Shown: positions 1 through 15,156 of the stretch, piece by piece
Layout: each line of letters begins with the position of its first letter
Position numbering within the stretch: the stretch's first letter is position 1
NCBI GenBank assembly: GCA_947496235.1
Contig: CANMCE010000001.1
Span: 62,001 to 126,000, forward strand
Length of the DNA stretch: 64,000 bases
Reading direction: 5' to 3'
DNA from: an uncultured Glaciecola sp.
GTDB taxonomy: Bacteria; Pseudomonadota; Gammaproteobacteria; Enterobacterales; Alteromonadaceae
Position numbers and translations under genes: made by a program
Notes under the pieces: model-generated
The model's database searches: none
What the model was told of the DNA's origin: nothing
What the model saw: the letters and a program-made list of their open reading frames with translations, nothing else

Positions 1-1
1 A

Positions 2-343
2 GAAAAATTGTTTAAAGAATATCTGGATAAAATAAATATGACTGATCAAATTAAGCTCTCAAACGAAACGGTAAATCAATTACCAAACAAATTGAAATCA
101 ACATATACATTATGGGCACAAGGTCATGATTTACGATCGCTCATGTCAAAACGCACTTATTATTATCATCGGAAAGAACTTGAAAGCTACGGCATCAATA
201 TCGATCTTGCGCCATGCTCAGAACATCAAAAAGAAAACAACGTGGTACCGATGATCCGCATCCTTGAAGCAACGCCAGCTAATATTCCTCGATGGGCATT
301 TACTAAAAACTTGATCCATTCATCTGCACAACGTTCCGCATAA
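2..343 (+). CDS. Rolling-circle replication protein, C-terminal part (cut by window start)
   Basis: This open frame enters from the left edge and encodes the last 113 residues of the same Rep protein that is complete at 2480-3517; the residues are identical. It contains the conserved C-terminal domain with the segment SLMSKRTYYYHRKEL. The apparent internal start at TTG 8 is not a real start, since the full copy reads through it as leucine 235. It belongs to the preceding tandem unit. It is incomplete only because of the window edge, as far as can be seen. Confidence 0.85.
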   Translation, partial: EKLFKEYLDKINMTDQIKLSNETVNQLPNKLKSTYTLWAQGHDLRSLMSKRTYYYHRKELESYGINIDLAPCSEHQKENNVVPMIRILEATPANIPRWAFTKNLIHSSAQRSA

Positions 344-367
344 CATTAAATGGTTAAAACGTGAGAG

Positions 368-394
368 ACCAGGTACGCGTGAGGCGTGCCTGGT
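368..394 (+). other. Hairpin downstream of rep (copy 1), candidate origin or packaging structure
   Basis: ACCAGGTACGC (368-378) pairs with GCGTGCCTGGT (384-394) around a 5-base loop, with one G-T pair. There is no following T-run, so it is not a typical intrinsic terminator. In filamentous phages the non-coding region after rep carries origin and packaging hairpins; that role here is inference. Confidence 0.5.
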
Positions 395-461
395 ATTGAG
401 CGTTTAATTCATTGATTTAATTAACTTAATTACAGCCCACTATTTATCCACCATTTAATTA

Positions 462-489
462 ATTGCGTATAATGTATATTAATTAGTCT
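462..489 (+). other. Inter-unit dif-like junction (attP-type) with degenerate XerD arm
   Basis: The 28-base site has XerC arm ATTGCGTATAA (462-472), centre TGTATA (473-478) and right arm TTAATTAGTCT (479-489). Arm and centre on the left equal those of the chromosomal dif at 3636-3663, but the right arm diverges from TTATGTTAAAT after three bases. A dif-like site lacking a good XerD arm is the reported layout of TLC-type satellite phage attP. The TTA at 483-485 inside this arm is also the stop codon of the leftward 72-residue gene, so the site and the gene end overlap. Confidence 0.85.
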
Positions 490-701
490 GTATTTGGGGG
501 CAGGTAGTAAGGCGATTTTTTACGTATTTCTACCCCATATTTTTGGGAAAGTTCTTTAGCGTGACGGTAGTAAGTCTCTCGGCTCATTAAAAAATAAGGG
601 TCGAATCCTAGCAACCAAGTGATGTAAGTACCTCGCAATCTGCATGGCATTCTTACTAATAATAATTGTTGCTCAGTATTTAATGTTACGTCTTTTATCA
701 C
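483..701 (-). CDS. Stand-alone homologue of the Rep C-terminal domain (gene X-like)
   Basis: This 72-residue protein aligns by eye over most of its length with residues 245-300 of the Rep encoded at 2480-3517. Shared positions include TY..W..G.D, LMS..TYY.H.KEL and the YG(V/I).I that follows. It is clearly divergent from Rep rather than a recent copy. The start is GTG at 701-699, two bases after the TAG stop of the leftward gene at 704-1567, so the two are probably translationally coupled. In Ff phages the C-terminal third of gene II protein is also made separately as pX, which tunes replication. A similar regulator, or an inhibitor of related elements' Rep, is inference. The stop codon lies within the junction site. 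Confidence 0.75.
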   Translation of the reverse strand: MIKDVTLNTEQQLLLVRMPCRLRGTYITWLLGFDPYFLMSRETYYRHAKELSQKYGVEIRKKSPYYLPPNTD

Positions 702-703
702 AT

Positions 704-1567
704 CTAATAAGGCTCTTGGTATTCTAATTTTTTGTATACAGGAGAGTCATAATCAATGTTTATTATCGTATTATTAGGGGTTAGAAGAAGCAAATAATCT
801 AAATTCAGCTCAGTTACAGTTCCTTTTATCAACTGTCCATTGCTGTCGTAAAACTGTAAATGATCATTTTGTTTAAAGCCGTTCCAGTTACCTTTACGTA
901 AACCATTTAAAGCACTTAGAGTAACTTCTCTATCTTTCCAAGATTGGCGTTCTCTATCGAAACGGCTTAATAATGCACTACCTTTTACAGTTACTGCACT
1001 CTCAATTTTAGTTAATCGACTTGTTATATCATTAATTGCGGAAAGAATAACACTTGAATCGCCTGAAAGTTCCACTTCATTAGATATTTCAGCTGGTTTT
1101 ATAGATAGCATTTTAATCAAGGAATTTACATCCTTACCTTTGTTTTCTACAGTTTCAATTATTGATGAGCTAATTGAAGGTACATCTTTTTTAACCTTAT
1201 CGGCTCTCAAAGATTCATCATAATCATAGGTTCTCATTCCCTGTATATCGAATATCCGATTAGTTTGCTTATCCTTGATTAACACTGTCGGTAAGTTGAA
1301 TGCTTGTCTCACCCCTAATTCATATAGCACATTTGGGTTTTTCCCACTTAAATCACATAAAACCAAATCACTATGATATATTTTATCCATAATATCTATG
1401 ACAATGTAATTTGAAGAAGCTACTTCGTCAGCTCTTACTGGAGTAAACCCAGCCTTGATGCATGCCGGTTTAATTAAGTACTCGTAGACTCTAGTAAAGT
1501 GACCTTCCTCGTAAGGTTCGATATCCGCTATAGGCATAATTACAAAGCACTTTTTTTCATTATCCAT
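704..1567 (-). CDS. TIR-like / nucleoside deoxyribosyltransferase-like protein with unknown C-terminal domain
   Basis: A 287-residue protein. Residues 1-110 form a Rossmann-like domain starting CFVIMPI, followed by VYEYLIKPACIKAGF, a RADE segment, DIMDKIYHSDLVLCDLSG and NPNVLYELGVRQAF. This arrangement is typical of the TIR-like/nucleoside 2-deoxyribosyltransferase-like proteins common in bacterial immune loci. Residues 110-287 match nothing I recognise; the last 70 look like a small beta-rich fold. A ribosome binding site AAGGTGA precedes the ATG. It sits in the cargo position of a dif-integrated satellite element with a coupled Rep-domain gene downstream. An NAD- or nucleotide-consuming antiphage or inter-element competition role is inference; no catalytic residue is assigned. 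Confidence 0.65.
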   Translation of the reverse strand: MDNEKKCFVIMPIADIEPYEEGHFTRVYEYLIKPACIKAGFTPVRADEVASSNYIVIDIMDKIYHSDLVLCDLSGKNPNVLYELGVRQAFNLPTVLIKDKQTNRIFDIQGMRTYDYDESLRADKVKKDVPSISSSIIETVENKGKDVNSLIKMLSIKPAEISNEVELSGDSSVILSAINDITSRLTKIESAVTVKGSALLSRFDRERQSWKDREVTLSALNGLRKGNWNGFKQNDHLQFYDSNGQLIKGTVTELNLDYLLLLTPNNTIINIDYDSPVYKKLEYQEPY

Positions 1568-1785
1568 TTTAAATCACCTTAATAAAAGTAATGCCCGTAG
1601 GGCATGGTAGCGAGGTACGAGCGGTAACCTCTGCGATTAGTAACAAGCAACATCCTTATAATGCGCCAAGTGTTTTTTAAATAACCAATGAATTTGGCTC
1701 GCCTCTTGATTAACCCACAAAAACGAAGTTTTTGTCTTGACTGATAGCGTCATAAATTCTCATGGGTGAGACTTTTACTACCCCG
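1568..1785. other. Non-coding hairpin cluster inside the element
   Basis: No credible gene lies between the TIR-like gene and the repressor gene. The stretch has a perfect stem ATGCCC/GGGCAT (1591-1605, 3-base loop), a second stem GAGGT/ACCTC (1612-1631) and the terminator-like stem at 1717-1735. A cluster of small hairpins in a non-coding part of a rolling-circle element fits a replication origin or complementary-strand origin, but nothing seen proves it. Confidence 0.45.
1717..1735 (-). terminator. Terminator-like hairpin after the repressor gene
   Basis: ACAAAAAC (1717-1724) pairs with GTTTTTGT (1728-1735) around a 3-base loop. Read on the minus strand it follows the repressor gene by about 50 bases. 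The stem itself is A/T rich and there is no long T-run after it, so efficiency is uncertain. Confidence 0.4.
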
Positions 1786-2280
1786 TCACAAATTCCCGTC
1801 AGTGGGAATAGGGGCTAAATCTTCCTCGCAAATATGAAGCTCTACATCGAGTTCTTCCCTTATATTTTTGATGGTATCTAAATCTTCAATAAGAGCATCT
1901 TTGGCATACTGCATTCGCATATATTCATATTCACCTTCAGATTTAGTTTCATACAACGATGGCTCTGGCGTGTCATTATCATTGCAATAGCTATGAATAA
2001 TATTCAATATCACAAAGCGCCTAAGTGGCGTTAAATCAGCGATACGCTTTACAGTTCGTTTTATATATTCTGAAGTCTCAACGGCTTCATCCATGATTAA
2101 TTCATCTGTTGTACAGGACAACGCAATAGCTAATCGTTTAATAGTTTCAAGCTTTGGCTCTGATGCTCCACGTTCAATTCTCGATACTTGTGTTAACTCT
2201 ATTCCGGCTTTCTCAGCAAGGTTGCCTTGCGTCATTCCTTTTTTAGTTCTGATTGCTTTCAAATTGCTACTAATTGACAT
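1786..2280 (-). CDS. XRE-family phage repressor (RstR-like by position)
   Basis: A 164-residue protein with an N-terminal HTH (residues 5-60): LKAIRTKKGMTQGNLAEKAG, then ELTQVSRIERGASEPKLETI. The C-terminal hundred residues are acidic and not recognised, perhaps for oligomerisation. It is transcribed divergently from rep with 199 bases between, the same logic as rstR/rstA in CTX and RS1 phages of Vibrio. It probably represses the rep promoter through the repeated motif at 2296-2385. Homology to RstR itself is not claimed; only the HTH and the position support the role. Confidence 0.8.
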   Translation of the reverse strand: MSISSNLKAIRTKKGMTQGNLAEKAGIELTQVSRIERGASEPKLETIKRLAIALSCTTDELIMDEAVETSEYIKRTVKRIADLTPLRRFVILNIIHSYCNDNDTPEPSLYETKSEGEYEYMRMQYAKDALIEDLDTIKNIREELDVELHICEEDLAPIPTDGNL

Positions 2281-2295
2281 TGCACACCCGTATTT

Positions 2296-2385
2296 TTGGC
2301 TTTATATGACTAGCATACACCCATTTTTTAGCCCTACATGTTTACATGTACTTATAAAGCCAATAAGATTGGCTTTAAATGACTA
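2296..2385 (+). promoter_or_regulatory. Repeated operator-like motifs between repressor and rep
   Basis: TTGGCTTTATATGACTA (2296-2312) recurs as TTGGCTTTAAATGACTA (2369-2385), one mismatch in 17. A third, inverted half copy CTTATAAAGCCAA lies at 2351-2363, facing the second across 5 bases. A TTGACA at 2386-2391 immediately follows and is a plausible -35 for rep, with a weak TATTTG 16 bases further on. These are good candidates for binding sites of the adjacent HTH repressor. No similar repeats were noticed elsewhere in the element. Confidence 0.6.
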
Positions 2386-2416
2386 TTGACAGCTTTTTGG
2401 TGAGCGTTATTTGAAC

Positions 2417-2447
2417 AAAGTCGGGAGTCTAGTAATACCCGACTTTT
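2417..2447 (+). terminator. Terminator-like hairpin in the rep leader (possible attenuator)
   Basis: AAAGTCGGG (2417-2425) pairs with CCCGACTTT (2438-2446), giving a 9-base stem and 12-base loop followed by a short T stretch. It lies after the putative rep promoter and about 33 bases before the rep start. It could terminate or attenuate rep transcription, or be a replication structure. Confidence 0.5.
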
Positions 2448-2479
2448 GTGCCAAATTTGCACTATTTTAGGAACATTCA

Positions 2480-3517
2480 TTGATAGATTGGGCGCGTGTA
2501 CATATCCCTTTTAAACATTCACCTTTAAACGGTGGTGAAGTTGTTTCTATCGATGAGGATGGCGAAGTAGCATGGCGAATACTTAAGCGAAAGCAAGCTA
2601 TCGGTAGCTTTGACAAACGCATTTCATTTAAGAGTATTGGCGGCGACGGGCAGGGTAATGCCACTCATTTATGGATAAGTGGAAACCCTTCTAAATTCTT
2701 GCAAGGTCACAACGTATTTGGCTCGGATGACTTAGTTTCATTGATGTTCGATACATTTAGAGTTATTTGCAATCAATTCAATTTCCAACCGACACTCCAA
2801 GAATACCAAGCGATTAAAAACGGTGATTATGAACTTGGTATAGTTGATATTAATTATTCCTATGAATTACCTAAACGCGCTGACGTTCAAGCGTTTATTC
2901 GAGCCTTAGAATTTAAAGCAAAAACACGTCATGGACGACCATCCATGAAAGGTGGAACTTTATACTTCGGAAAAAATTCAGAACGCTGGGCTATAAAACT
3001 GTATGCTAAAGGAGAAGAATTAAGTACTAAAACAGGCGCTTTACCTGACGCCTTAAAACATCAAGGTATTGAAGATTGGGCTGATAACAAACTACGAATT
3101 GAACTTAGATTATTATCCAAAGAATTGGCGAAATTAGGTATTAAACATGCAGCTACATTGACGCCAGAGCTGACAGAAAAATTGTTTAAAGAATATCTGG
3201 ATAAAATAAATATGACTGATCAAATTAAGCTCTCAAACGAAACGGTAAATCAATTACCAAACAAATTGAAATCAACATATACATTATGGGCACAAGGTCA
3301 TGATTTACGATCGCTCATGTCAAAACGCACTTATTATTATCATCGGAAAGAACTTGAAAGCTACGGCATCAATATCGATCTTGCGCCATGCTCAGAACAT
3401 CAAAAAGAAAACAACGTGGTACCGATGATCCGCATCCTTGAAGCAACGCCAGCTAATATTCCTCGATGGGCATTTACTAAAAACTTGATCCATTCATCTG
3501 CACAACGTTCCGCATAA
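2480..3517 (+). CDS. Rolling-circle replication initiation protein, filamentous phage gene II/X (Rep/Cri) type
   Basis: A 345-residue protein starting at TTG with AGGA 7 bases upstream; this start gives the family's usual MIDW N-terminus. Recognisable blocks are the start MIDWARVHIPFKHSPLNGG, the central GGTLYFGKNSERW followed by KLYAKGEEL (158-182), LRIELRLL (205-212) and the C-terminal domain (246-303) with LMSKRTYYYHRKELESYGI. Family members nick the origin and start plus-strand rolling-circle replication. The tyrosine in KLYAK is a candidate nucleophile, by analogy only. It is divergent from the repressor gene and ends 119 bases before dif. Confidence 0.88.
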   Translation: MIDWARVHIPFKHSPLNGGEVVSIDEDGEVAWRILKRKQAIGSFDKRISFKSIGGDGQGNATHLWISGNPSKFLQGHNVFGSDDLVSLMFDTFRVICNQFNFQPTLQEYQAIKNGDYELGIVDINYSYELPKRADVQAFIRALEFKAKTRHGRPSMKGGTLYFGKNSERWAIKLYAKGEELSTKTGALPDALKHQGIEDWADNKLRIELRLLSKELAKLGIKHAATLTPELTEKLFKEYLDKINMTDQIKLSNETVNQLPNKLKSTYTLWAQGHDLRSLMSKRTYYYHRKELESYGINIDLAPCSEHQKENNVVPMIRILEATPANIPRWAFTKNLIHSSAQRSA

Positions 3518-3655
3518 CATTAAATGGTTAAAACGTGAGAGACCAGGTACGCGTGAGGCGTGCCTGGTATTGAGCGTTTAATTCATTGATTTAATTAACT
3601 TAATTACAGCCCACTATTTATCCACCATTTAATTAATTGCGTATAATGTATATTA
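3175..3655 (+). repeat. Direct repeat copy 2 (end of the complete element unit)
   Basis: Second copy of the 481-base direct repeat, offset 3174 bases from the first. It ends inside the chromosomal dif, where host sequence takes over. Lack of divergence suggests recent integration or amplification, or gene conversion between copies. Confidence 0.97.
3542..3568 (+). other. Hairpin downstream of rep (copy 2)
   Basis: Exact copy of the structure at 368-394, between the rep stop codon and dif. Same considerations: no T-run, possible origin, packaging or mRNA 3' end structure. Confidence 0.5.
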
Positions 3656-3663
3656 TGTTAAAT
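3636..3663 (+). other. dif: Chromosomal dif site (XerC/XerD dimer resolution), right border of the element
   Basis: XerC arm ATTGCGTATAA (3636-3646), centre TGTATA (3647-3652) and XerD arm TTATGTTAAAT (3653-3663). Centre and XerD arm are identical to E. coli dif as I recall it; the XerC arm differs at three positions. The XerD arm and everything to the right are host sequence. This places the window in the replication terminus region and identifies the element as a dif-integrated one. The XerC arm now present may come from the element rather than the original chromosome. Confidence 0.92.
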
Positions 3664-4291: not shown

Positions 4292-5221
4292 ATGACCATA
4301 ATTTATTTTATTATCTTTCTTTGTATTGTTTGGCTGTTAATAATGTACAGTAATTTTGAAATTTTAGGTAAATATACCTATAAAATCTTTAATGCGTTAG
4401 AAGCTAAAAGTGCGAAATTAACAAGAAAACAAATATCGATAAATGGGCTTCCTATTGATTATTACGATAACGAAAATATAAAAAGCCCAGCATTATTATT
4501 GCTCCATGGTTTTAGTGCTGATAAGAATGCGTGGAACAGAATTGCTAAATATCTTACGAAAGATTATCGTTTGATTGTACCGGATTTATTAGGTCATGGA
4601 GATACCCCCTATTCGCCTTCAACTAATTACTCTGCCTTTACACAAGCAGAGATGTGTCAAACATTGGTCAAAGAATTAAAACTTCAAAATATTTGTGTTA
4701 TCGGGAACTCAATGGGCGGCATGATCGCAATGATCCTGCACGATAAAGCACCCAAAGAGTTTACCAAGGCCGTTTTAATTGACCCTGCGGGCGCTAAAAC
4801 AAAGTTTGCCATCGAATTGGATAGGCTTGGCGCTAATCCTTTTGCTCATAAGGATAAAAGTACAGTCATAAAGTTTTATGGGTTAACAATGGCCAAAATG
4901 CCTTTTATTCCTAAATCAGTGCTTAGTTTTATCGCAAAAAGTCAATATATAGATAAAAATCAGCAGCTTATTCATATGTTTAAAGACTTTTTTAACATCA
5001 ATGAGTTTTTCGAATTACCCTTTTCGAATTCTCCGGATGATGTACTTATTCTGTGGGGAAAAGAAGATAAGATGATGCCATTAGAAAATGCGGATTTCTA
5101 TCAAGAACTCACACATCAAGCGCCATTGATCATATATCCAGGCGTTGGTCACATGCCAATGTTCGAAATTCCTGAAAAAACTGCGAACGATATTAAAAAT
5201 TTCCTCTCTAAGACAAAATAG
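4292..5221 (+). CDS. Membrane-anchored alpha/beta hydrolase, lipase-like
   Basis: A 309-residue protein. Residues 3-20 form a hydrophobic N-terminal segment, probably an uncleaved inner-membrane anchor. The alpha/beta hydrolase fold follows: oxyanion HGF (72-74), nucleophile elbow GNSMGG with Ser140, acid Asp259 in GKEDK, and His287 in GVGHMP. The pattern resembles Moraxella/Psychrobacter-type lipases and esterases. Substrate is not predictable. It is the first chromosomal gene right of dif, stands alone, and is followed by a small same-strand HTH-like gene after 83 bases. Confidence 0.85.
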   Translation: MTIIYFIIFLCIVWLLIMYSNFEILGKYTYKIFNALEAKSAKLTRKQISINGLPIDYYDNENIKSPALLLLHGFSADKNAWNRIAKYLTKDYRLIVPDLLGHGDTPYSPSTNYSAFTQAEMCQTLVKELKLQNICVIGNSMGGMIAMILHDKAPKEFTKAVLIDPAGAKTKFAIELDRLGANPFAHKDKSTVIKFYGLTMAKMPFIPKSVLSFIAKSQYIDKNQQLIHMFKDFFNINEFFELPFSNSPDDVLILWGKEDKMMPLENADFYQELTHQAPLIIYPGVGHMPMFEIPEKTANDIKNFLSKTK

Positions 5222-7317: not shown

Positions 7318-7788
7318 ATGCAAGGTGATATCGCCGTTATCAAAGCACTGAACGATATTCTAACGTTGGAGCTTACTTCTATTAATCAGTATTTTTTGCA
7401 TGCTCGAATGCATAAAAATTGGGGTTTTGAAAAGTTAAATAAAGCTGAATATAAAAAATCCATACTTGATATGAAGCAAGCGGATAAACTCATTGAGCGT
7501 ATTTTGTTCCTCGAAGGTTTACCGAATCTTCAGGCCCTTGGGAAATTATTTATTGGTGAAGATACCGAAGAATGTATCCAATGTGATATTACGTTCGAGC
7601 AGAGCCAAATTCCTCAATTAAAAGACGCAATTGCCTTGTGTGAACAACATAAAGATTACGTGAGTCGAGATTTGTTAACTTCACTACTTGACGATGAAGA
7701 GGAATACCTTGATTGGTTGGAAACACAACAATATCAAATTGCAGAGATGGGCATTGCAAATTATCTGCAAGCACAAATAGAGGACTAA
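7318..7788 (+). CDS. bfr: Bacterioferritin subunit, haem-binding type with altered ferroxidase centre
   Basis: A 156-residue protein collinear with E. coli Bfr, including [21 protein letters not shown] and a C-terminal NYLQAQI. The haem ligand Met52 is present. Of the ferroxidase ligands, Glu18 and Glu127 are kept but Glu51 is Asp, His54 is Gln and His130 is Tyr, so the di-iron site is probably poor or inactive. The next gene, starting 4 bases after this stop, has the complementary pattern. Mixed 24-mers of two such subunits are known from Neisseria and some others. The start is ATG preceded by a GGTAA stretch. Confidence 0.9.
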
Positions 7789-7792
7789 TAGT

Positions 7793-8260
7793 ATGCAAGG
7801 TAATGAACGCGTTATCGCTGGATTAAACAGCTTACTTGGCTATGAATTAGCCGCAATGGATCAATACTTCATCCACTCACAGATGTACCTTGATTGGGGA
7901 TTAAACAAACTTTACGAGCGCATTGCGCACGAATTTGATGATGAAAAAGGTCATGCGAGCAAGTTAATTGAAAGAATGCTATTTCTTGGTGGTGTGCCGG
8001 ACATGCAAACTAGAACAGGTTTTAAAGTCGGAAAAGACGTTAAAGAAATGCTCAAAAGTGACTTGCGTGTAGAATACGAAGTTGGTGACAAACTAAAAGA
8101 AGTTATAGCTGTTTGTGAACAAGAAAAAGACTATGTGTCTCGCGACATGTTAGTTGTACTGCTTGATGACACTGAAAACGATCATGCACATTGGTTAGAG
8201 CAGCAATTAGGTTTAATCGAGCGTGTTGGTATTCAAAATTATCAACAATCACAAATCTAA
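7793..8260 (+). CDS. bfr: Bacterioferritin subunit, ferroxidase type lacking the haem ligand
   Basis: A 155-residue Bfr with an intact set of ferroxidase residues (Glu18, Glu51, His54, Glu127, His130, and a Glu near 94). Position 52 is Lys instead of the haem-ligating Met. It starts 4 bases after the haem-type subunit and is followed by a good terminator, so the two form a two-gene iron-storage operon. One subunit should oxidise iron while the other binds haem used in iron release; this division of labour is inferred from the residues. Confidence 0.92.
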   Translation: MQGNERVIAGLNSLLGYELAAMDQYFIHSQMYLDWGLNKLYERIAHEFDDEKGHASKLIERMLFLGGVPDMQTRTGFKVGKDVKEMLKSDLRVEYEVGDKLKEVIAVCEQEKDYVSRDMLVVLLDDTENDHAHWLEQQLGLIERVGIQNYQQSQI

Positions 8261-11181: not shown

Positions 11182-12135
11182 ATGAGTATGTTTTGGACAA
11201 TTTGGATCAGTGTGATAACGCTAGGCTCTATTGCTGGCTGCTTCTTTCTGCTCCGTTGGACACTTGCAAACCAAACAGGTGTTCCCGAAGGCGAAGAAAT
11301 GGGACATGAGTTCGATGGAATCGTTGAAATTAACAACCAACTACCACGTTGGTGGACCATCCTTTTCTGGATAACTATGGTATGGGGCGTATTATATCTT
11401 GCGGCCTACCCTGGACTTGGCGCTTATAAAGGCTTTTTAGGCTGGAAGAGCTCAAACCAAGGTGTATTATCATTAGAAGAGTCAGAACAAGCGCTTAGAG
11501 CTGATATTGAAGGTAATGCTTGGAACGAGTATGCAATTCAAATTAAACAAGCTGAAGAAGAGTTTGATCCTATCTTTGCTGAATATGCAAAAATTCCAGT
11601 GGAGCAATTAGCAACTAATGACGAAGCAGTACAAGTAGGTAAGCGTTTATTCTTACAAAACTGTGCGCAATGTCATGGTAGTGATGCTAGAGGTCAAAAA
11701 GGTGGGTTCCCTAACCTAACTGACAACGATTGGTTATACGGTGGAAGCGGCGATAAAATCAAAGAAACCTTAATAAATGGTCGTCAAGGCGCTATGCCTG
11801 GATGGTTAGAGCCTTTAGGTGAACAAGGTGTTGCCGAGGTGGTTGCCTATGCTATGAGTTTGAGTGATCATCCAGACACTGATACCGCATTAGTAGATGC
11901 TGGACAAGCTCGCTTCGTAGTTTGTGCTGCTTGTCACGGTATGGACGGTAAAGGTAATCAGTTATTAGGAGCTCCTAACCTAACAGACAACATTTGGTTG
12001 TACGGTGGTTCTAAACGAGCAATTACTGAAACCCTTAACTATGGGCGTAACGGAGTAATGCCTTCATTTAAGAAAACCTTGGGTGAAGATAAAATCCACG
12101 TTGTAGCATCTTACGTTTATAGCTTATCTAATTAG
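11182..12135 (+). CDS. ccoP: cbb3-type cytochrome c oxidase subunit III (dihaem)
   Basis: A 317-residue protein with two N-terminal transmembrane segments (about 4-26 and 57-76) and two cytochrome c domains. Haem motifs are CAQCH (161-165) and CAACH (248-252), each followed by the repeated PNLTDN.WLYGG segment; axial methionines are likely near 205 and 293. It receives electrons from soluble cytochrome c. It is the last gene of the operon and is followed by a strong terminator. Confidence 0.97.
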   Translation: MSMFWTIWISVITLGSIAGCFFLLRWTLANQTGVPEGEEMGHEFDGIVEINNQLPRWWTILFWITMVWGVLYLAAYPGLGAYKGFLGWKSSNQGVLSLEESEQALRADIEGNAWNEYAIQIKQAEEEFDPIFAEYAKIPVEQLATNDEAVQVGKRLFLQNCAQCHGSDARGQKGGFPNLTDNDWLYGGSGDKIKETLINGRQGAMPGWLEPLGEQGVAEVVAYAMSLSDHPDTDTALVDAGQARFVVCAACHGMDGKGNQLLGAPNLTDNIWLYGGSKRAITETLNYGRNGVMPSFKKTLGEDKIHVVASYVYSLSN

Positions 12136-12750: not shown

Positions 12751-15156
12751 ATGAGCATAGCTATTGCTGAAGGTTGTTGTTTTCATTGCGGATTACCAAA
12801 CGAAGAAGGCAATAAATATCCAGTTGAAATAAATAACAAATTACACCACATGTGCTGTCCGGGTTGCCAAGCAGTGGCACAGGCTATTGTCGAAAATGGG
12901 CTGGCAAATTATTACGAATTTAGAACAGAGCCCGCTGCACGTGGCGATTCAGCCTTAGATAACACCATGGCTCAACTTTCTGTGTATGACGAACCTGAAT
13001 TGCAAGAAGAGTTTGTATTTGACCAAGGTAAACATAAACAAATACAGTTGACAGTTGAAGGCATTACTTGCGCAGCATGCGGTTGGTTAATAGAAAAACA
13101 ACTGGCGAAAGTAAAAGGCTTAAAACAAATTTCAGTGAATGTTTCGGCCAGAAGAGCTTTGGTGACTTGGGACGAAAGCGAAACCAAGCTATCAGGAATT
13201 CTGGCGCGCCTCAAAGCTATTGGTTATGCCTCCCTGCCTTTTCATCCTGATGAACACGAAGCGTCGTTCAAAAAAGAACAAAAAAGTTACATGAAAAAGC
13301 TGGGGCTTGCCGGCATTATGACCATGCAAGTGATGATGCTCGCCTTTGGTCAATATTTTGATGTGTTTGGGAATTTAGATGCGCAAACACAAGGTTACTT
13401 TAATGCTGTGAGCTTAATGTTAACCACACCAGTCGTTTTTTATTCTGCAAGTGTATTTTATCTAAGTGCGCTAAAAGCCATACAGGCTCGAACCGTTAAT
13501 ATGGATGTTCCTGTTACCATTGCCATATTTTCAACCTACATTGCCGGTTTGCTAGCCGTCAATGATGGCAGTGGTGAAGTGTATTTTGAATCTATCTGTA
13601 TGTTTATCTTTTTCTTGCTAATCAGTCGTTTCTTAGAACACCGTTCACGGCATAAAGCCACTGAAATATCTTCTAATATGCTTAAACTAATCCCTGCTAC
13701 AGCCAGTAAATTAGTCAATAACGACTGGGTGTCAGTGTTAGCTAAACAGCTTGTTGCTGGTGAACATGTATTGGTCAAAGCAGGTGAATCAATTCCAATA
13801 GATGGCAAAATTGTAAAAGGCCAGTCTACTATTGATGAATCTATGCTAACCGGTGAGTTTGAGCCGGTATTTAAAGCGCAGGGGCAACAAGTCTACGCGG
13901 GTACCGTAAACCAGCAAGCTAACCTTGAAATCGAAGTGACTAGTCAATTAAAGTTTGCCATGATGAATCAAATTCTTCGCTTGCAAGAAGTTGCTTTAGC
14001 GCGAAAACCCAAGATTGCAAAAATGGCAGATACCTTCTCTCGTTATTTTGTATCTATTGTTTTAATGATCAGTGCGTTAACTTATATTTATTGGCATCTG
14101 CAAGACAGTACAGATGCCTTTTGGATCACTATTTCTGTTTTAGTTGCAACCTGCCCTTGTGCCCTAGGATTGGCTACTCCCTCTGCCCTAACTTGTGCCA
14201 TGGCAAAATTGAATAAATTAGGCATATTATTAAAAAGAGCCGATGCTTTAGAGCAAATGACCAACGCCACAGACATAATATTCGATAAGACCGGCACCTT
14301 GACTCAGGGTAAATTCTCTATTCAACAAATACATATGTTGTCTGATAAGTACTCACAAGATTACGTTATGCAGTTGGCAACATTCATCGAAAAACGCTCT
14401 GAACATCCCATAGCTAAAGCTTTTGACTACGGATTTGACGCCCATGATTTCCAACTAGAAGATTATCAAATCACTATTGGTCAAGGCGTACTAGCAAAGG
14501 TGAATGGAAATTTAGTGGTAGTGGGATCTAAACGCTTTATTAAATCGCAACTAAACAATGCAGAGGTTTGCGATACCATTAATGCCAATGTGTATATTGC
14601 AATAAATCATGAAATCGTTGCAGCCTTTTTAATTACCGACACAGTATTACCTGAGACTCAAAAAGTGATCAGTGAATTAAATGACTATTCGTTATGTATT
14701 CTAAGCGGTGATGAGCAAAAAAACGTGAATAATATTGCAACAGAGATTGGAATTAATCGCGCCGTTGGTGAACAAACGCCTGAAGGAAAGCTCAATTATG
14801 TACAACAAGAACAAGCGAAAGGTAAATCATTAATAATGCTAGGCGATGGCATTAATGATGCCCCTGTATTAGCGGCTGCTGATGTGTCTGTTGCGGTCGG
14901 AAACGCCTCTGATTTAGCCAAGAATGCAGCTGATGTCATCTTAATCAATCCCAAATTAAATGCCTTGGTTGATTTGATAAGCATGGCGAAACGCACAAAA
15001 ACTAAAATAAAACAAAATATTATTTGGGCGCTTAGTTATAATGTCATCGTTCTGCCGTTTGCAGTAATGGGCTTACTAAGTCCTTGGCAAGCTGCATTAG
15101 GCATGTCCTTAAGTTCGATTATTGTTGTGTATAACTCTACTCGTTTAATGCGTTAA
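12751..15156 (+). CDS. fixI: Copper-translocating P1B-type ATPase for cbb3 assembly (FixI/CcoI)
   Basis: An 801-residue P-type ATPase. In order: a cysteine-rich N-terminal segment (CFHCG, CCPGCQ), an HMA domain with GITCAACG near residue 105, transmembrane helices, TGE, the metal-binding CPC near 468 followed by ALGLATPSALT, the phosphorylated Asp in DKTGT near 513, and GDGINDAP near 697. FixI-type pumps deliver copper to the binuclear centre of cbb3 oxidase rather than mainly giving resistance. It lies between fixH and ccoS with short gaps. Confidence 0.95.
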   Translation: MSIAIAEGCCFHCGLPNEEGNKYPVEINNKLHHMCCPGCQAVAQAIVENGLANYYEFRTEPAARGDSALDNTMAQLSVYDEPELQEEFVFDQGKHKQIQLTVEGITCAACGWLIEKQLAKVKGLKQISVNVSARRALVTWDESETKLSGILARLKAIGYASLPFHPDEHEASFKKEQKSYMKKLGLAGIMTMQVMMLAFGQYFDVFGNLDAQTQGYFNAVSLMLTTPVVFYSASVFYLSALKAIQARTVNMDVPVTIAIFSTYIAGLLAVNDGSGEVYFESICMFIFFLLISRFLEHRSRHKATEISSNMLKLIPATASKLVNNDWVSVLAKQLVAGEHVLVKAGESIPIDGKIVKGQSTIDESMLTGEFEPVFKAQGQQVYAGTVNQQANLEIEVTSQLKFAMMNQILRLQEVALARKPKIAKMADTFSRYFVSIVLMISALTYIYWHLQDSTDAFWITISVLVATCPCALGLATPSALTCAMAKLNKLGILLKRADALEQMTNATDIIFDKTGTLTQGKFSIQQIHMLSDKYSQDYVMQLATFIEKRSEHPIAKAFDYGFDAHDFQLEDYQITIGQGVLAKVNGNLVVVGSKRFIKSQLNNAEVCDTINANVYIAINHEIVAAFLITDTVLPETQKVISELNDYSLCILSGDEQKNVNNIATEIGINRAVGEQTPEGKLNYVQQEQAKGKSLIMLGDGINDAPVLAAADVSVAVGNASDLAKNAADVILINPKLNALVDLISMAKRTKTKIKQNIIWALSYNVIVLPFAVMGLLSPWQAALGMSLSSIIVVYNSTRLMR

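What the first reader, a model, noticed from the sequence alone, without database searches (positions are those of the whole stretch)
1..3663. Tandem satellite-phage-like element integrated at dif, with no structural genes
A 481-base exact direct repeat at a 3174-base offset, a gene II/X-type Rep, a divergent XRE repressor and bordering dif-type sites together define a Xer-exploiting filamentous element in tandem copies. The unit has no coat, assembly or integrase gene, like RS1/TLC satellites of Vibrio cholerae, but is set here in an Alteromonadales chromosome and carries unrelated cargo. The Rep-plus-repressor backbone and dif integration are known in principle; this gene content is one I do not recognise.
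Basis: partly seen in the sequence, partly recalled or inferred. Interest (0 to 1): 0.85.

Follow-up and report, generated by a model that had tools for sequence, protein, structure and literature searches.

The report
Tiny tandem phage satellite at dif
Two identical 3.2-kilobase copies of a stripped-down filamentous-phage parasite sit at the chromosome's dimer-resolution site; it can probably copy itself but shows no coat genes, and it carries a small, oddly placed DNA-binding gene beside its attachment site that may help it use the host's recombinases.

Summary
The window starts inside a tandem array of two identical 3174-bp units (the first mostly left of the window), ending at a perfect dif (3637-3663). 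Each unit has a gene II/X Rep, a divergent RstR-like repressor, a TIR/nucleoside-deoxyribosyltransferase-fold cargo, a 72-aa gene ("p72"), and no recognised coat, assembly or integrase gene. No Zot gene was found in the host genome, so no resident helper was seen. The RS1/TLC comparison holds: the attachment site has the TLC layout (XerC arm and central region like dif, XerD arm degenerate). New here: (1) a hairpin with a TAGTAATA loop before Rep, with covarying stems in relatives and present in a small plasmid and an apparently complete inovirus: the likely rolling-circle origin; (2) p72, a detached copy of the Rep C-terminal domain, usually beside the att site with an AGTCTG-type motif in place of the XerD arm, found with two Rep families and in that inovirus. 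I propose, unproven, that p72 does the job of TLC's XafT (XerD activation); a pX-like replication regulator is the main rival. New variant of a known kind.

The parts
1..481 (+). right end of the left unit (Rep C-terminus 1-343, terminator-like hairpin, XerC-side end); the rest of that unit lies left of the window
482..3655 (+). complete 3174-bp unit, identical to the unit on its left
463..490 (+). unit-unit attachment site: XerC arm TTGCGTATAA, central TGTATA, degenerate XerD side TTAATTAGTCTG
   Evidence: TLC-type layout per PMC4246890 section 9
483..701 (-). p72: 72-aa stand-alone homologue of the Rep C-terminal domain; its stop codon lies inside the att site
704..1567 (-). cargo: 287-aa TIR / nucleoside 2-deoxyribosyltransferase-fold protein (phrog_3634); ends 2 bp before the p72 start
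1786..2280 (-). XRE repressor, RstR-like
2296..2385 (.). three TTGGCTTTA boxes (2296+, 2355-, 2369+) between repressor and Rep: candidate operators
   Evidence: function inferred
2418..2445 (+). hairpin AAGTCGGG-AGTCTAGTAATA-CCCGACTT: candidate rolling-circle origin
2480..3517 (+). Rep, gene II/X family, 345 aa
3543..3567. terminator-like hairpin after Rep (read by eye; the scan does not list it)
3637..3663 (+). right junction = intact dif

Best explanation
A filamentous-phage satellite that uses the host's Xer recombinases. Rep nicks the loop of the hairpin at 2418-2445 and drives rolling-circle replication; the RstR-like repressor silences Rep in the lysogen through sites in the shared intergenic region; having no integrase, the circle recombines with dif through an att site of TLC layout, and repeated integration gives tandem copies; packaging and transfer need the coat and assembly proteins of an inovirus that was not found in this genome. 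p72, probably cotranscribed with the cargo, would bind the altered XerD side of att (AGTCTG) and activate XerD without FtsK, as XafT does for TLCphi. The cargo is probably a nucleotide-cleaving enzyme of the TIR/NDT superfamily, plausibly anti-phage. Shown: gene content, tandem copies, junctions, conserved hairpin, p72's descent from Rep and its usual place beside att. Inferred: all functions.
For: Two exact units ending at dif; tandem copies are usual for filamentous phages at dif (passages of PMC7307601). Rep in PF05144/PF05155 and TIGR01629. RstR-like repressor. The same plan (XRE divergent from Rep, dif on the Rep side) in L046, L051, L054, L055, L057 and L060; one relative is a contig with 99-bp identical ends (L052). 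Origin hairpin with covarying stems, and in a plasmid and an inovirus. TLC-type att. p72 matches the Rep C-terminus (hhalign 98.3%); an att core with at most 2 mismatches lies within 200 nt after its stop in 9 of 11 sites, against 73 of 4000 random windows; p72 goes with Reps of two families and with an apparently complete inovirus (L279).
Against: No helper in the genome: Zot family 0 matches in G000; in the genus 1 of 13 genomes has one match just over the cut-off (20.7 against 20.3 bits). No shared packaging signal found: outside p72 and Rep, own unit and L279 share no blastn match at E 0.05. p72 without a close att core: G055 (best 5 mismatches), G388 (4), Dulem virus 58 (none under 3 mismatches), L148 (exact core but 784 nt away), so by genome or phage 7 of 11 have it close. 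p72 and the presumed XafT-like proteins show no profile similarity. p72's homology to Rep fits a replication role at least as well. The repressor is below the RstR cut-off.
Confidence: 0.62

Rival explanations
1. An integrating rolling-circle plasmid of inovirus descent that lives at dif and spreads by transformation or conjugation, not in virions.
For: No helper found in this genome. 61 plasmid records carry a related Rep, and 20 of the 30 listed are 1.8-2.2 kb; pTA144 Up shares the origin hairpin, though the Vibrio gigantis plasmid tested (L302) does not.
Against: RstR-like repressor; p72 with an att is shared with an apparently complete inovirus; relatives sit at dif like RS1/TLC.
Confidence: 0.27
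2. p72 is not a recombination factor but a detached pX-like regulator that limits Rep activity or blocks competing II/X phages. (This concerns p72 only and is compatible with the satellite reading.)
For: It is a copy of the Rep C-terminal domain; in Ff phages pX is that domain and regulates replication (recalled). Dulem virus 58 has it with no att core near. The distant Rep beside it in G388 is still a II/X Rep by Pfam.
Against: It also occurs beside a Rep of family PF23343, in which Pfam found no G2P_X_C domain, and it usually abuts att.
Confidence: 0.45
3. Dead remnant: an old prophage reduced by deletion.
For: No helper found; a broken relative lies at dif in G009.
Against: Two units identical over 3174 bp, all four genes open, and a similar gene plan in other genomes.
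Confidence: 0.08

Closest known systems
TLCphi satellite (Vibrio cholerae)
   Same: Replication module without structural genes, integration at dif, att with XerC arm and central region like dif and a degenerate XerD arm (PMC4246890, section 9 and passages)
   [quoted passage not shown] details recalled); none recognised here, p72 in a comparable place; different cargo
RS1 satellite of CTXphi
   Same: RstR-like repressor divergent from a phage Rep, small tandem unit at dif (RS1 layout recalled)
   Different: No gene between Rep and att here; TIR-like cargo and p72 instead
Inoviridae with II/X Rep (I2-2; L279; Dulem virus 58)
   Same: Rep family; stand-alone p72 in L279 and Dulem virus 58; origin hairpin in L279
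   Different: They carry morphogenesis genes; this unit shows none
Small plasmids with II/X Rep (pTA144 Up)
   Same: Rep family and origin hairpin
   Different: Only Rep and two hypothetical proteins annotated; no att or p72 search was made on it

Membership tests
dif-integrating filamentous-phage satellite (RS1/TLC kind) | II/X-type replication protein | tested here: met
dif-integrating filamentous-phage satellite (RS1/TLC kind) | insertion at dif with dif-like att, no integrase | tested here: met
dif-integrating filamentous-phage satellite (RS1/TLC kind) | no coat or assembly genes | tested here: met
   none among the 4 genes and one hydrophobic ORF; other short ORFs not scanned
dif-integrating filamentous-phage satellite (RS1/TLC kind) | packaging by a helper inovirus | not testable with these tools
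   no Zot in the host genome; needs an experiment
TLCphi type | att with dif-like XerC arm and central region, degenerate XerD arm | tested here: met
TLCphi type | XafT-like XerD activator | tested here: inconclusive
   profile of 6 presumed XafT-like proteins (label recalled) has no hit in the unit at E 1e-3; p72 not detectably related to them
RS1 type | RstR-family repressor | tested here: inconclusive
   NF041951 E 2.1e-20, 73 bits against a cut-off of 80
RS1 type | rstB and rstC after rstA (recalled) | tested here: not met
   119 bp without an ORF of 40 aa or more between Rep and att; RstB and RstC sequences themselves not compared
complete inovirus | gene I (Zot) and coat genes | tested here: not met

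The most novel reading that the evidence does not exclude
p72 is a Rep-derived Xer activator: a detached copy of the gene II/X C-terminal domain that recognises the AGTCTG side of att and lets XerD start recombination without FtsK. It would be a second solution, separate from XafT, to the same problem, carried as an att module between satellites with Reps of two families and inoviruses.
Probability: 0.32. Interest if true: 0.8.

Novelty: new variant of a known kind. Interest (0 to 1): 0.6.

Why it matters
It extends dif satellites, best known from Vibrio cholerae, to ~3-kb elements in other Gammaproteobacteria, many marine. They lack the coat genes that virus catalogues look for (the p72 scan of IMG/VR gave one locus; a profile found one more among Rep loci), and draft contigs can end inside them. 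It supplies a candidate origin for II/X Reps and a small, testable candidate for an unrecognised Xer accessory factor, and it shows a variable cargo slot that can hold defence-like genes: TIR-like here; a DUF4145 protein resembling PD-T7-4 in Alteromonas flava (E 1.1e-6); a protein with a sub-threshold HEPN match in Porticoccus. Of 10 relatives' proteins tried, only that one matched PADLOC.

Tried and rejected

Literature: the listings showed no title that describes this element or p72. Seen as passages: PMC4246890 (section 9 whole), PMC9765430, PMC11389934, PMC11630473, PMC7307601. [quoted passage not shown]

Caveats of counts: each locus's hairpin was picked for best pairing before arms were shuffled, and shuffled sets were not picked anew, so 0 of 2000 overstates the case. 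18 sequences were tried (own and L046-L062, 17 of the 35 loci); L062 was dropped from the count, and for L058 another stem was picked than the aligned one. Random windows come from the same loci and include true att sites; 3 of the 11 sites are from one genome.

Full report
WHAT IS THERE. Window 1-481 repeats exactly at 3175-3655. The window is G000:C1:62001-126000, and a second match, window 370-3655 at 100%, lies at C1:59196-62481. In the stretch fetched around it (L003) the 3174-bp unit occurs twice, letter for letter, at 13308 and 16482. The right junction is TTGCGTATAATGTATATTATGTTAAAT; at the left and middle junctions the first 19 of these bases are the same and the XerD side reads TTAATTAGTCT. 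On the chromosome side of the left unit 112 bp resemble the unit's right end with 4 mismatches: probably the scar of an older element.

THE SITE IS DIF. 12 of 13 genus genomes (own included) match the right flank next to dif; the 11 relatives have dif-like 27-mers with 0-3 mismatches there. In G009 the alpha/beta hydrolase and Kef-type genes right of dif are shared (40% and 64% identity), and a broken Rep lies just left of dif. The loci held for the other relatives, 1.6-3 kb, gave no such protein match, so wider synteny is shown for G009 alone. GC skew is positive left and negative right, turning some 10-20 kb to the right.

RELATIVES. Of 395 genomes of the family 20 have a Rep match at E 1e-3. 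p72 matches 12 of 395; by frame length 6 are stand-alone (G000, G022, G388, G146, G055, G198) and 6 are Rep C-termini. In the order 7 of 394 match, 4 of them stand-alone (own, G397, G487, G465). In named genomes 35 loci have a Rep relative. Alteromonas flava (L046) carries an array with att sites at 5033, 5328, 8530, 11291 and dif at 11506: a 3.2-kb unit with p72, a DUF4145 cargo, XRE, Rep and a 152-aa protein, then a 2.8-kb unit with p72, a 298-aa protein, a 95-aa protein (RHH match below cut-off) and a Rep of family PF23343 (4.6e-34), with two short remnants. G487 (L189) holds a 2.4-kb unit with p72, a relative of that 95-aa protein and a Rep 51% like the PF23343 one, between att and dif. 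G388 (L183) has p72 with a distant II/X Rep (25% identity to own; PF05155 1.7e-13, PF05144 6.3e-6). So p72 goes with two Rep families; whether PF23343 and II/X Reps are distantly related was not tested. p72 is not uniformly better conserved than Rep: own against A. flava 87% and 61%, NORP44 69% and 59%, Aliagarivorans 38% and 60%. Contigs end in or at the element in G388, G198 and G215, as expected of collapsed repeats.

ORIGIN. Before Rep lies AAGTCGGG-AGTCTAGTAATA-CCCGACTT, ending 42 bases from the start codon. Of 18 sequences tried 17 were counted: 130 of 136 stem positions pair against a mean of 91 (maximum 112) when 3' arms are dealt out anew; 14 distinct stems; 13 of the 17 picked loops end in TAGTAATA, and L049, L050 and L060 have close variants (see caveats). 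In 19 further or repeated loci a stem with a GTAATA or GTAACA loop end was found in 11, among them pTA144 Up, L279, L062, the Shewanella locus L063 and IMG/VR loci L081, L084, L086 and L104, and not in 8, among them I2-2 (L092), the Vibrio gigantis plasmid and the dif phages L192, L193, L194 and L196; the other 60 kb of the window give 4 stems, none with such a loop. I read it as the double-strand origin of this Rep lineage; an RNA element in the Rep leader is possible.

ATT AND P72. The review PMC4246890 (section 9) says the TLC att has a XerC site and central region almost identical to dif and a XerD site of very little similarity, and that its integration is XerD-first and needs no FtsK. 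This unit's att has that layout. PMC9765430 (passages) says an IMEX of V. [quoted passage not shown] I recall the original paper (not held) as reporting XafT-like proteins in many such elements. In phages at dif such as L194 (Zot PF05707 1.8e-19) a probable helix-turn-helix gene ends near att as p72 does; calling it XafT-like is my recall (one relative, L057, matches DUF3653 weakly). The att core starts 4 nt after the p72 stop in own, A. flava and Aliagarivorans. Of 11 p72 sites tested 9 have a core with at most 2 mismatches within 200 nt. By eye, [AG]GTCTG stands beside the core at a like distance in own, A. flava, NORP44, Aliagarivorans, G198, L279 and G388, not in G487; in NORP44 and L279 it lies outside the p72 gene, so there it is kept as DNA. 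The att sites of L194, L051, L053, L056 and L057 lack it. The att pattern occurs without mismatch only in G000 (2), G022 (4) and G215 (1) of 395 genomes; with one mismatch allowed 13 genomes match, against 5 for the reversed control. Against: G055, G388, Dulem virus 58 and L148 have p72 without a close core.

HELPER. G000 has no Zot match. A 6972-base contig with 127-base identical ends (L279), also present in an Alteromonadaceae assembly (L073/L185), has gene I (phrog_1675 6.9e-59; PF05707 2.8e-21), a minor coat gene (phrog_1944 2e-7), Rep, an open 66-aa p72 (PF05155 27.8 bits, over its cut-off) and an att core (2 mismatches) 47 nt after it; its presumed major coat and gene III proteins match no PHROG at E 0.01, so 'apparently complete' is my reading. 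Inoviruses with this att set thus seem to exist and could help this family; no link to this unit is shown.

VERDICT. An RS1/TLC-like dif satellite, a new variant with two notable parts. Satellite-like anatomy is well supported, packaging is inferred, the p72 role is a hypothesis.

Noticed in passing
L046 4998-11520: Alteromonas flava has an array at dif of two different satellite-like units with Reps of different Pfam families sharing p72 and att, plus two short remnants.
   Followed up: yes
L183 590-886, L056 6109-6420, L055 2783-3088: A ~100-aa protein with similar wording (by eye: F.G.A.H...DEFLH...LFD) recurs in three elements; no Pfam hit for the L183 copy and no PADLOC hit for the L183 and L056 copies.
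   Followed up: partly
L003 453-6273: Four consecutive long genes that look like photolyase/cryptochrome family members lie left of dif (from the translations; no family search made).
   Followed up: no
window 7318-8260: Two adjacent bacterioferritin-like genes (from the translations; no family search made).
   Followed up: no
G388 C5 end (L184), G198 C34 end (L190), G215 C14 end (L297): Contigs stop inside or just past the satellite's left att, so draft genomes may hide such arrays.
   Followed up: partly
L187 4170-5453: A HipA-like gene stands beyond the att of the NORP44 element (from the translation).
   Followed up: no
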